Of a stretch of DNA of 54,473 bases, positions 1 to 46,246 are shown piece by piece (the stretch's first letter is position 1; every line of letters starts with the position of its first letter). Source of the stretch: an uncultured Lachnospiraceae bacterium (GTDB lineage: Bacteria; Bacillota; Clostridia; Lachnospirales; Lachnospiraceae); NCBI GenBank assembly GCA_948470905.1, contig CAOKQK010000013.1:1-54473 (forward strand), given 5' to 3'. Made by a program: the position numbers and the translations under genes. The notes beneath the pieces were generated by a model that did no database searches, was not told the origin of the DNA, and saw only the letters and a list, made by a program, of their open reading frames with translations.

Positions 1-55
<55 letters not shown>

Positions 56-40493: not shown

Positions 40494-42494
40494 CTACCCC
40501 TGTCTGCGATACTGCACCGGCGTAATTCCATAGCTTTTCTTGAATAGCCTGTTAAAATGCTCCACATTCTCATAGCCGGACTCCACGGCAATGGCCTCCA
40601 CAGTCTGGTCAGTCTCCCGCAGCATGGTGCGCGCCCGTTTCATGCGCTCCTCCCGGACCACGTCCTGAAAAGTCATGCCTGCCTTTTCCCTGATGTATCT
40701 GGAGAGATAGGGCTTGGAGAGATGAAAGATATCCGAAAGCGTATCCAGCGTCACATTTTTATAATGCTTCTGGATATAGGTGACAATTTCCACAATCCTG
40801 TCTTCCCTTGCCTCCGTGATGTGCTGTTCTGCGGCGAGTTTGTTTACGGCGGAGGCAAGCGCCGCAATGGAAGCCTTAATAATGTCCTCATCCACGCCTA
40901 CGCCCCAGTAAACCTTGTCCTCGCAGGCAATGCCCACATACGCCGCCGCCCTGGAGCTGGACCCCCTGGAGACGGCATGCTCCTCATATACGGAAAGCTC
41001 ATAGCTGACGCCGAAACAGGTCTTGAGAGCGTTGCTCACCGCGTCAAGCCTTCCGTTTCCCGCCGCCTCAATGATCCTTCTGTCCCCGTTCTGCTCGATT
41101 GTCACCTGTGCCTGGATCCCTTTTTCCTGGCGGAAATGGCACTCCGGTATGCTGAAGATACTGCGCGCGGAGATATAATTTTCCTCAAAAATGGCATAAA
41201 TCTCAGCGGGATGCAGCTCCTGATGACGCCTGTCAGAAATCCCCTTCACCAGATATCCCACCTCCTCTTTCATTGCCGCAGGCAGTGAGAATCCAAACTG
41301 TTCCTTCAGCACAAACGCCACGCCGCCCTTGCCGGATACGCTGTTGATGCGGATGACATCGGACTCATACTCCCTGCCCACGTCCTCCGGGTCAATGGGC
41401 AGATAAGGCACATCCCAGCGCTTTCCGCTCCTGCCCTCTTTCAGCCACGCCATACCCTTACTGATGGCATCCTGATGAGATCCGGAGAAGGCAGTGAACA
41501 CCAGGTTCCCCGCATAGGGCGTGCGCTCATGGACCTTCATACCGGTAAAGCCCTCATAAGCCTCCCTGATTTTCATGATATGGGAGAAATCCAGCCCGCT
41601 GTCCACACCGTGGCACATCATGTTCAGCGCCACAGTCACCAGGTCCACGTTTCCGGTGCGCTCCCCGTTCCCGAACAGGGTGCCCTCCACACGGTCCGCC
41701 CCCGCCAGAATTCCAAACTCCGCGTCGCTGATGCCGCAGCCTCTGTCATTGTGGGGATGTACGCTCAGAACCACATTCTCCCGATATTTCAGATGCCTGT
41801 GCATGTACTCCACCTGGCAGGCAAACACATGGGGCATTGCCACCTGCACCGTGGTCGGCAGATTGATGACCGCCTTATGTGCCGCGTCCGGCTTCCACAC
41901 GTCAAGCACCGCATTGCACACCTCCAGCGCATACTCCACCTCTGTCTGGGAAAAGCTCTCCGGGCTGTACTCGAAGGTAAAGGACCCTTCCGTCTCCTCC
42001 GCAAGCCTTTTCAGAAGCTCCGCCCCGTCCACAGCAAGCTTCTTTATGGCTTCTTTATCCTTTTTAAAGACCTGTTCCCTCTGCTCCACGGAAGTGGAAT
42101 TATAGAGATGGACCACTGCGTGGGGAGCACCCTTCACCGCCTCAAAGGTCTTCCTAATAATGTGTTCCCTCGCCTGGGTCAATACCTGGATAGTCACATC
42201 CTCCGGTATCATATCCTTCTCTATCAGTGTACGGATGAAATTATACTCCGTATCGGAGGAAGCGGGAAACCCCACCTCGATCTCCTTGAAGCCAATTTCC
42301 ACCAGCAGTTCAAAAAAAGCCAGCTTATCCTCCAGGCTCATGGGATCTATAAGCGCCTGATTACCGTCCCGCAGATCCACGCTGCACCAGACAGGCGCCC
42401 TGTCGATAGAATCCTTCTTCACCCAGTCATAAGTCACTTCCGGGGGCATATGATAGGTCTTGCCGTATTTCTCACTGATTGCCGTCTTATCCAT
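40494..42494 (-). CDS. leuA: 2-isopropylmalate synthase (type 2) fused to an AraC-type DNA-binding domain
   Basis: A 666-residue protein in one uninterrupted frame. Residues 1-435 are a type-2 LeuA TIM barrel: SVDLRDGNQALIDP (Arg/Asp metal and substrate site), SVHPHNDRGCG (His246/His248 metal ligands) and GTLFGNGERTGN. It condenses acetyl-CoA and 2-oxoisovalerate in leucine synthesis. Residues 440-553 are the LeuA_dimer regulatory domain that binds leucine. Normal type-2 enzymes end here. Residues 565-666 are a complete AraC/XylS domain: helix-turn-helix one LDTLSDIFHLSKPYLSRYIREKAGM and two QTVEAIAVESGYENVEHFNRLFKK, ending YGITPVQYRR. ATG 42494 has GGAGG seven bases upstream. The N-terminal enzyme is complete, so I infer an enzyme that also regulates. 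Not known to me elsewhere. Confidence 0.94.
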   Translation of the reverse strand: MDKTAISEKYGKTYHMPPEVTYDWVKKDSIDRAPVWCSVDLRDGNQALIDPMSLEDKLAFFELLVEIGFKEIEVGFPASSDTEYNFIRTLIEKDMIPEDVTIQVLTQAREHIIRKTFEAVKGAPHAVVHLYNSTSVEQREQVFKKDKEAIKKLAVDGAELLKRLAEETEGSFTFEYSPESFSQTEVEYALEVCNAVLDVWKPDAAHKAVINLPTTVQVAMPHVFACQVEYMHRHLKYRENVVLSVHPHNDRGCGISDAEFGILAGADRVEGTLFGNGERTGNVDLVTVALNMMCHGVDSGLDFSHIMKIREAYEGFTGMKVHERTPYAGNLVFTAFSGSHQDAISKGMAWLKEGRSGKRWDVPYLPIDPEDVGREYESDVIRINSVSGKGGVAFVLKEQFGFSLPAAMKEEVGYLVKGISDRRHQELHPAEIYAIFEENYISARSIFSIPECHFRQEKGIQAQVTIEQNGDRRIIEAAGNGRLDAVSNALKTCFGVSYELSVYEEHAVSRGSSSRAAAYVGIACEDKVYWGVGVDEDIIKASIAALASAVNKLAAEQHITEAREDRIVEIVTYIQKHYKNVTLDTLSDIFHLSKPYLSRYIREKAGMTFQDVVREERMKRARTMLRETDQTVEAIAVESGYENVEHFNRLFKKSYGITPVQYRRQG

Positions 42495-42570: not shown

Positions 42571-42592
42571 ACAGTGCTGTGCCGATTTGAAA

Positions 42593-42621
42593 ATATTATC
42601 ATATAAATATTGCCCTATCAA
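42593..42621 (-). promoter_or_regulatory. leuA promoter
   Basis: On the minus strand TTGATA (42616-42621) and TAATAT (42593-42598) are separated by exactly 17 bases. The start of the transcript would be near 42586, giving a leader of about 90 bases that contains a small GAGGA/TCCTC hairpin. Confidence 0.65.
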
Positions 42622-42622
42622 T

Positions 42623-42654
42623 GATTTATTTTGTTATTTATTTTGATTTATTTT
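42623..42654 (-). promoter_or_regulatory. Three direct repeats upstream of the leuA promoter (AraC-domain site candidate)
   Basis: On the minus strand the 10-mer AAAATAAATC/A occurs at 42645-42654, 42635-42644 and 42623-42632, at spacings of 10 and 12 bases. The last copy ends one base before the -35 hexamer. AraC-type activators usually bind direct repeats abutting the -35 box. The surrounding 42600-42780 region is AT-rich, which lowers the weight. Confidence 0.45.
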
Positions 42655-42902
42655 ATTATATTTTTTATTAGAAATACATATTTCACTAATTTTAAGAACA
42701 ATCTAACTTGTTTAAATTTATTGTGATAATTGATCTTTTTTATTAACGCTCTCCATATTTTAGCAAACACCACGGGGATTTCAAGGTTATCTGTTTTCTT
42801 TCAAATATATTATATATTATCCCTATCTCAGCCATTTCCCTTATTGTCCGCTGAAATCAAATACCCCGTTGCATTCGTCAAGGTCCCAGAGAAGTAAACT
42901 TT

Positions 42903-45994: not shown

Positions 45995-46225
45995 GCGTGG
46001 CTTAATAGTACCTGTCACAGGCAGGTCTTCTGGCTTGAGTATCCTCATCCTGCTTCGCCTTCCCAGGCTGACGCCCAGTGGCTGGTATCAAAGTACTGTC
46101 CGGTACTTGCTCCCTGAAGCAAAACTCCTCTCTCACAGCGACGGGTTCGCGCAGGTCTTTCACCTGCTTCCCTTTTCATCGGACCCAAACCACATTCCTG
46201 CGGTTCGTCCGACACCTGTAACAAT
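45995..46225 (-). ncRNA. Cobalamin (B12) riboswitch
   Basis: The minus strand shows the ordered conserved blocks of the cobalamin riboswitch. First comes AAAAGGGAA (near 46170-46180), then GGTGAAAGACC, the CCCGTCGCTGTGA segment and the B12 box GCCACTGGGCG (45-base region around 46072-46082). GGGAAGGCG follows, and AGCCAGAAGACCTGC (46021-46035) closes the structure. It lies between the dehydrogenase gene and the DUF4430/ECF genes on the same strand. Cobalamin binding should lower expression of those two genes, probably through the T-run hairpin at 45938-45969. Confidence 0.95.
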
Positions 46226-46246
46226 TCATTCCAATTTTCCCAACTG

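What the first reader, a model, noticed from the sequence alone, without database searches (positions are those of the whole stretch)
40494..42494. 2-isopropylmalate synthase fused to a complete AraC-type DNA-binding domain
One continuous frame encodes a full type-2 LeuA barrel, a full leucine-sensing dimer domain and then both helix-turn-helix units of an AraC domain. All catalytic and metal residues seen in LeuA are kept (RDG, HPHND, GNGERTGN). The join lies exactly where ordinary type-2 enzymes end. This suggests a biosynthetic enzyme that also acts as its own leucine-responsive transcription factor, with the LeuA_dimer domain serving as the ligand input usually provided by an AraC sensor domain. 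I do not know of a described example.
Basis: partly seen in the sequence, partly recalled or inferred. Interest (0 to 1): 0.93.

Follow-up and report, generated by a model that had tools for sequence, protein, structure and literature searches.

The report
Leucine enzyme that regulates its gene
In many gut bacteria the enzyme that starts leucine synthesis carries a gene-switching domain at its end, and a matching DNA site usually sits in front of its gene when that domain is present and is missing when it is not, so the enzyme very probably controls its own production.

Summary
The fusion is real. Window 40494-42494 (-) encodes one 666-aa protein: a complete type-2 2-isopropylmalate synthase followed by a complete AraC-type double helix-turn-helix (HTH). 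At least 89 of 397 sampled genomes of the same family carry it full length, as do 76 of 80 named loci, so it is no artefact.

The main new result is its probable target: a ~40-bp operator next to the promoter of the fused gene. A matrix trained on 29 loci scores it in 44 of 60 held-out fused genes. Among 40 unfused leuA genes it occurs only in the two whose HTH is a separate neighbouring ORF. In 14 of 15 fused genes with a T-box leader it lies upstream of the leader; all four fused genes found outside the family have it. A matrix from relatives alone ranks this promoter first in the window. In four genomes it also precedes other leu/ilv operons.

Most likely: an enzyme that is also a transcription factor controlling leuA, with LeuA_dimer as leucine sensor, often where sister genes use T-box control. 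Control of its own promoter is well supported by comparison. Leucine response, direct binding and sign are untested. Eight literature searches listed no description.

The parts
40494..42494 (-). leuA-araC fusion gene, 666 aa plus stop
   Evidence: full length in at least 89 of 397 family genomes and 76 of 80 named loci
41562..42392 (-). HMGL-like catalytic barrel (residues 35-311)
41304..41507 (-). IPMS_D2 post-catalytic domain (residues 330-397)
40836..41219 (-). LeuA_dimer allosteric domain (residues 426-553), presumed leucine sensor
   Evidence: GNGRLDA conserved in fused proteins; leucine binding not tested
40794..40835 (-). variable linker (residues 554-567), 32% mean pairwise identity in fused proteins
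40497..40793 (-). AraC-type double HTH DNA-binding domain (residues 568-666)
   Evidence: segments taken as recognition helices (placed by eye) 78-81% pairwise identical, whole domain 64%
42618..42659 (-). promoter-proximal operator: half-sites 42657-42642 and 42635-42620, 22 bp apart; the second overlaps the -35
   Evidence: best site in the window, both strands (44.5 bits), with a matrix built from 39 relatives and not from this site; only match in the own genome at E<=0.5 (E 0.064; 150 of 1518 first-look candidates scored) with model R2; half-site scores 17.6 and 8.8. Model R1 misses it
42705..42746 (-). second operator, upstream: half-sites 42744-42729 and 42722-42707, also 22 bp apart, 87 bp from the proximal one
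   Evidence: second-best site in the window (16.7 bits); best site outside this promoter 0.7; half-site scores 20.7 and 9.7
42616..42621 (-). -35 hexamer TTGATA
   Evidence: sequence, read by eye; 17-bp spacer to the -10
42593..42601 (-). extended -10 TGATAATAT (hexamer TAATAT 42593-42598); predicted start of transcription near 42586
   Evidence: sequence; a TGnTAnnAT element (5 of 6 fixed letters) starts 57-59 nt after the start of the site in 147 of 153 fused loci, 6.2 expected by shuffling

Best explanation
The protein is a bifunctional leucine-pathway enzyme and autoregulator. Its first 553 residues are a type-2 2-isopropylmalate synthase. Its C-terminal AraC domain binds an operator of two half-sites, about 22 bp apart, that abuts or overlaps the -35 of the leuA promoter. 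The enzyme is a dimer (recalled for the family), so it can present two AraC domains to the two half-sites, the role that the sugar-sensing domain plays in AraC. Leucine bound in LeuA_dimer would inhibit the enzyme and also change the placing of the AraC domains, so that leucine-free protein activates the promoter and leucine-bound protein does not, or represses with a second operator. In one subgroup the second operator starts about where transcription would start, 73-75 bp (seven helical turns) downstream; in the window it lies 87 bp upstream instead. Shown by comparison: the fusion, its conservation, the operator, its fixed place at the promoter, its coupling to the HTH. Inferred: direct binding, leucine as signal, looping, and activation rather than repression (a little better than even odds). 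The confidence given is for control of its own promoter.
For: (1) De novo motif in 29 fused upstream regions: log-likelihood 384 (width 28) against 85-96 in three shuffled sets. (2) With that matrix, 400 bp upstream, 44 of 60 held-out fused loci score 13.6 bits or more (the other 16 score 5.7 or less); of 40 unfused loci (one with only 56 bp upstream) 2 do, the others -4 or less, and those 2 (L098, L106) have the AraC HTH as a separate ORF directly after leuA. (3) Of 15 fused loci with a T-box core, 14 have the site 283-381 bp upstream of that core (none of these sites was in training). (4) At >10 bits within 1000 bp: fused 82 of 89, unfused 0 of 37, split 2 of 2 (54 of these sites trained the matrix). 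(5) HTH was gained or lost repeatedly on the tree; in 4 independent pairs on well-supported branches the operator went the same way in 4.0 on average over 200 pairings, never the opposite way. (6) All 4 fused genes found outside the family have the site, 36-54 bits. (7) A matrix from relatives ranks the leuA promoter first and second in the window. (8) Genome-wide, the best R1 match is upstream of leuA in 11 of 12 fused genomes and a match at leuA is found in 60 of 77 more; most of these sites were in training. In 40 genomes chosen for an unfused leuA only G061, the split form, has one at leuA. (9) Fixed spacing to an extended -10. (10) Sites upstream of leuC-leuD in two genomes, leuB-ilvD-ilvB in one, ilvB-(ORF)-ilvE in one. 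(11) 35 of 40 fused genomes have no other LeuA_dimer match.
Against: No binding, expression or enzyme data. Seven of 89 fused loci lack a site above 10 bits (L010, L050, L065, L072, L082, L088, L090). Of 13 non-leuA matches at E<=0.01, 9 are not at recognised leu/ilv operons, and 17 of 18 leuC loci of fused genomes have no site. In G005 the best matches are not at leuA. The own site reaches only E 0.064 genome-wide and R1 misses it. The 22-bp repeat is clear in the window but the second half-site is on average a poor copy of the first: mean score at offset 22 is -4.1 (family set) and -5.3 (named set), and offset 13 does about as well in the named set (-5.0). The tree test has 4 supported pairs and cannot reach p<0.05. 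The own genome also has an unfused type-2 leuA (L001). The sign is open: -35 elements match TTGACA at 3.2-3.7 of 6 positions on average.
Confidence: 0.8

Rival explanations
1. The operator belongs to a separate, stand-alone regulator; the HTH on LeuA has another target or merely came along.
For: Binding was not tested; AraC-like regulators are common in such genomes (recalled). Some matches lie at genes that are not leu/ilv.
Against: Site and HTH go together: fused 82/89, unfused 0/37, split 2/2; among 40 genomes chosen for an unfused leuA only the split form has a site at leuA; 4 of 4 fused genes outside the family have it.
Confidence: 0.08
2. Simple autorepressor: the protein, with or without leucine, blocks RNA polymerase at the overlapping -35 (and at a second operator); there is no activation.
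For: Proximal half-site overlaps the -35; where a second site is found 50-99 bp downstream it is at 73-75 bp in 24 of 31 loci, near the expected start of transcription; the window's own -35 TTGATA and extended -10 look good.
Against: In the family set the -35 is often poor (TTTCCT is the commonest, 11 of 82), as in activator-dependent promoters; an AraC-type site just upstream of and touching the -35 is the usual activating position (recalled). In the window the second site lies upstream, not downstream.
Confidence: 0.35
3. The HTH is a vestigial or structural appendage without DNA binding.
For: The linker is poorly conserved (32%); unfused enzymes exist without the domain.
Against: HTH_18 matches end to end; putative recognition-helix segments are about as conserved as the catalytic barrel (78-81% against 81%); the operator goes with it.
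Confidence: 0.04
4. Assembly or frameshift artefact joining leuA to a neighbouring araC gene.
For: The window comes from an assembly of 157 contigs, about 90% complete.
Against: The same single-frame join in at least 89 of 397 genomes and 76 of 80 named loci, including Acetatifactor muris DSM 23669 and the complete genome of Lachnospiraceae bacterium GAM79.
Confidence: 0.01

Closest known systems
Type-2 2-isopropylmalate synthase (NF002991/PRK03739; solved relative PDB 1sr9)
   Same: Whole enzyme part: barrel, D2 and LeuA_dimer, catalytic stretches
   Different: The 40 unfused relatives fetched end at 550-575 aa and mostly lie behind a T-box: core motif at 32 of 37 unfused against 15 of 89 fused loci; Rfam T-box in 16 of the 20 unfused loci given
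AraC/XylS-family regulators (AraC DNA-binding domain 2k9s, SoxS 7w5w)
   Same: Complete double-HTH domain; two-half-site operator touching the -35, in a subgroup a second operator about seven helical turns away
   Different: The sensor and dimer part is a full biosynthetic enzyme
Ada (recalled): AraC-type HTH joined to a DNA-repair methyltransferase
   Same: An enzyme domain joined to an AraC-type HTH that regulates its own gene
PutA, BirA, NadR (recalled): enzymes that double as transcription factors
   Same: A metabolic enzyme that also regulates genes of its pathway
   Different: Other enzymes and other DNA-binding domains; none concerns leucine synthesis

Membership tests
Type-2 2-isopropylmalate synthase | Whole-length match above the curated family cut-off | tested here: met
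   NF002991: residues 8-552, 791 bits, cut-off 455
Type-2 2-isopropylmalate synthase | Catalytic and metal-binding residues kept | tested here: met
   WCSVDLRDGNQ invariant, HPHNDRG and GNGERTGN invariant or nearly so in fused proteins; their roles are recalled
Type-2 2-isopropylmalate synthase | Enzyme activity and leucine inhibition | not testable with these tools
   Indirect: the only LeuA_dimer match in 35 of 40 fused genomes
AraC/XylS family | Complete double-HTH domain | tested here: met
   HTH_18 positions 1-80 of 80, residues 586-665
AraC/XylS family | Direct-repeat half-sites about 21 bp apart near the -35 | tested here: inconclusive
   Clear in the window (-163/-141 and -250/-228); over all loci the second half-site is a weak copy, and offset 13 scores about as well as 22 in the named set
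AraC/XylS family | Sequence-specific DNA binding and regulation | not testable with these tools
   Co-occurrence of operator and HTH only
AraC/XylS family | N-terminal cupin-type sensor as in AraC itself (not shared by all members; recalled) | tested here: not met
   No such domain in Pfam; the N-terminal part is LeuA
Bifunctional enzyme and autoregulator (PutA/BirA-like in manner) | Regulates its own gene or pathway | tested here: inconclusive
   Operator at the own promoter and, in four genomes, at other leu/ilv operons; no expression data
Bifunctional enzyme and autoregulator (PutA/BirA-like in manner) | DNA binding controlled by a pathway metabolite | not testable with these tools
   Leucine response inferred from LeuA_dimer

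The most novel reading that the evidence does not exclude
A self-contained leucine homeostat: one allosteric site sets both the flux (feedback inhibition) and the amount (transcription) of the committed enzyme, with catalytic state or substrate possibly also read out at the promoter and paired operators that may form a loop. The gene carries its own operator, so it can move between lineages as a working unit and take the place of T-box control.
Probability: 0.4. Interest if true: 0.93.

Novelty: new variant of a known kind. Interest (0 to 1): 0.87.

Why it matters
End-product inhibition of an enzyme and control of its gene are normally separate circuits. Here both appear to hang on one domain of one protein, in many genera of a gut-associated bacterial family. 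The operator is defined to the base, so the idea can be tested at once by binding and reporter assays. It also offers a natural, possibly leucine-responsive regulator of unusual design, a likely case of protein-based control standing where sister genes have an RNA leader, and a caution for annotation: among the 25 NCBIfam matches shown, only an enzyme model passes its cut-off.

Tried and rejected
Reading the operator as an inverted repeat (TCAA-N6-TGAT): that element is strong in the main clade but not kept in the clade of the window, whereas the window has two clean 22-bp direct repeats. The direct repeat is preferred but not proven: on average the second half-site is weak and offset 13 competes.

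General regulon beyond leuA: searched with leuC (18 of 30 fused genomes gave a locus) and rejected as general, 1 of 18 having the site. The other non-leuA matches at E<=0.01 (L161, L162, L163, L165, L166, L167, L168, L171) lie at genes not recognised as leu/ilv; L164 lies near ilvB but could not be assigned. In the four leu/ilv cases the -10-like element starts 59-61 nt after the site start and the distance to the gene is 115-501 bp, a looser fit than at leuA. In the window's genus the matches of the fused G627 and G685 at leuA stand, G657's best match lies inside a coding frame, and the remaining matches checked are not at a leuA; G670 and G677 have none.

A T-box upstream of the window's gene: none found by Rfam. 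Structure prediction was tried seven times and the machine was always busy, so there is no model and no fold search.

Literature: eight searches of the held library; only listings were seen, no paper was opened. Searches found no paper; one search listed 20 of 131. No listed title or shown start of an abstract describes a LeuA-AraC fusion. Most subscription papers are not in the library.

Rows dropped or special: L018 (47 bp upstream) and L127 (56 bp) left out of the operator counts; L018 left out; L096 is cut by its contig end; 4 of 80 named loci are partial. The matrix was trained on 54 fused loci, so 82/89 is not held out; 44/60, 14/15 and 4/4 are. The 12-bit and 10-bit lines and the 57-59 nt range were set after seeing scores.

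Full report
WHAT IS THERE. The minus-strand frame 42494-40494 encodes 666 residues without a stop. Pfam places HMGL-like at 35-311, IPMS_D2 at 330-397, LeuA_dimer at 426-553 and a complete HTH_18 at 586-665, all above cut-off; NF002991, 2-isopropylmalate synthase, covers 8-552 at 791 bits. By sequence, the best solved matches are 2-isopropylmalate synthase 1sr9 for residues 29-521 and AraC-type DNA-binding domains for about 565-664. The neighbours are not leucine genes: an MFS transporter gene upstream and a formate/nitrite transporter gene downstream, both on the same strand.

IT IS CONSERVED. In 397 genomes drawn from the same family, 366 have a LeuA match at E<=1e-30, and at least 89 (the own genome included) align to the window protein through residue 663 or beyond, the others at 61-83% identity (the list was cut after the strongest matches). 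Of 300 relatives of the C-terminal part found in named genomes the best 80 were kept; 76 of 80 are full length, among them Acetatifactor muris DSM 23669 and the complete genome of Lachnospiraceae bacterium GAM79. In an order-wide draw 50 of 392 genomes carry it, all of the same family; four listed same-genus genomes do not. In class-wide and phylum-wide draws 13 of 391 and 4 of 398 do, four of them outside the family (G990, G1175, G1305, G1307). In 35 of 40 fused genomes tested the fusion is the only LeuA_dimer match. The window's own genome has a second, unfused type-2 leuA (L001).

THE OPERATOR. Expectation-maximisation on the 400 bp upstream of 29 fused genes gave a strong motif (log-likelihood 384 against 85-96 in three shuffled sets). 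On held-out loci, 44 of 60 further fused genes score 13.6 bits or more, the other 16 score 5.7 or less. Of 40 unfused genes only two do, and in both the AraC HTH is encoded by its own small ORF directly after leuA (L098, L106). Fifteen fused loci have a T-box core (14 of them were given to Rfam and 12 reach its cut-off); in 14 of the 15 the site lies 283-381 bp upstream of that core, two of them weak at 13.9 and 15.1 bits. Counting 1000 bp upstream and 10 bits, 82 of 89 fused, 0 of 37 unfused and 2 of 2 split loci have it (54 of the sites trained that matrix). The seven fused loci without it are L010, L050, L065, L072, L082, L088 and L090.

ITS ANATOMY. Consensus in the family set: ATTAAAAwAnATCAAtnAAAnTGATTAAATTTaTCACTT. 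I read it as two TTAAA...ATCA half-sites 22 bp apart. In the family set offset 22 is the best copy of the first half-site (mean -4.1 bits, next -5.6 at 13); in the named set 13 (-5.0) and 22 (-5.3) are about equal, so the second half-site is weak on average and the spacing is not settled by these data alone. A TGnTAnnAT element begins 57-59 nt after the start of the site in 147 of 153 loci, 6.2 expected by shuffling (the range was set), so the site touches or overlaps the -35. A second site 50-99 bp downstream was found in 31 loci and lies at 73-75 bp in 24 of them (24 of 38, where distance was free), about where transcription would start. These come mostly from related rows.

IN THE WINDOW. 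A matrix built from 39 relatives and not from the window's site puts its two best sites in all 54 kb, both strands, at 42659-42618 (44.5 bits) and 42746-42705 (16.7 bits); the best site outside this promoter scores 0.7. Each consists of two half-sites exactly 22 bp apart (-163/-141 and -250/-228). The proximal one overlaps a -35 TTGATA (42621-42616) followed after 17 bp by TAATAT (42598-42593). In the whole own genome this is the only match at E<=0.5 with a model from 38 relatives, though weak as a genome-wide statistic (E 0.064; 150 of 1518 first-look candidates scored). The broader model R1 misses it.

COUPLING TO THE HTH. On a tree of 130 enzymes (FastTree; 43 of 127 inner branches open) the HTH label needs at least 9 changes, gains or losses. 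On well-supported branches there are 4 independent pairs that differ in HTH; over 200 pairings the operator goes the same way in 4.0 on average, sometimes 3, never the opposite way (too few for p<0.05). Genome scans with R1 find the site upstream of leuA as best hit in 11 of 12 fused genomes (G005 is the exception) and some match in 64 of 77 more, in 60 of them at leuA; most of these sites were in training. Of 40 genomes chosen for an unfused leuA, two have any match at E<=0.01: the split-HTH genome G061, at leuA, and one weak match inside a coding frame. All four fusions from outside the family have the site at 36-54 bits. These and the T-box loci were not used in training and are the cleanest prediction tests.

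OTHER TARGETS. Of 13 non-leuA matches at E<=0.01 in fused genomes, four precede leucine or branched-chain operons: leuC-leuD in G207 and in G216, leuB-ilvD-ilvB in G341, ilvB-(ORF)-ilvE in G191. Nine do not, as far as I could tell. Of 18 leuC loci from fused genomes one has the site. The general target is leuA itself; wider control is sporadic.

RELATION TO T-BOX CONTROL. T-box cores (at most 1 mismatch, within 700 bp) occur at 32 of 37 unfused and 15 of 89 fused loci (string test). Rfam confirms a T-box in 16 of 20 unfused loci given. The HTH thus largely stands where an RNA leader stands in sister genes, and some loci have both. The independent-pairs test for HTH against T-box shows no clear trend.

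HOW IT MOST LIKELY WORKS. A dimeric enzyme (recalled) presents two AraC domains to the operator. The position at the -35 and the often poor -35 elements (3.2-3.7 of 6 matches on average) suggest activation when leucine is low; leucine in LeuA_dimer would inhibit the enzyme and turn activation off, with a second operator allowing repression or looping in some lineages. Segments placed by eye as recognition helices are about as conserved as the barrel (78-81% against 81% mean pairwise identity; whole HTH domain 64%), which fits DNA binding. Binding, signal and sign are inference.

NOVELTY. Enzymes that double as regulators are known (PutA, BirA, NadR, Ada; recalled). A leucine-synthesis enzyme with an AraC domain and its own operator was not seen in eight library searches (listings only). 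I file it as a new variant of a known kind.

Noticed in passing
L098 2122-2466 (-) and L106 2092-2343 (-): Two genomes have leuA and the AraC HTH as separate adjacent ORFs (overlapping by a few bases in L098) and keep the operator: natural split forms, or frame breaks in assembly.
   Followed up: partly
L001 (own genome, contig C20): A second, unfused type-2 leuA in the window's genome, without a T-box found by Rfam in the stretch held; the same-genus genome G022 also has a second, shorter LeuA_dimer frame.
   Followed up: partly
window 46003-46234 (-): Cobalamin riboswitch (Rfam RF00174, 108 bits).
   Followed up: no
L162 4103-4144 (-): An R1 match (E 7e-5) upstream of a gene that looks MarR-like, followed by genes that look like prephenate dehydratase and DAHP synthase (named by eye); chance or a second kind of target.
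   Followed up: no
L171 4051-4092 (-): An R1 match (E 6e-4) in G191 between a folD-like gene and a gene that looks like a bile-acid/sodium symporter-type transporter (named by eye); possible keto-acid transport link.
   Followed up: no
L282 (G990, same phylum but not same class): Fused leuA with operator, about 77% identical to a family member: probable lateral transfer of gene with operator, or a misbinned contig.
   Followed up: partly
window 1-54 (-): Partial tRNA at the contig edge.
   Followed up: no
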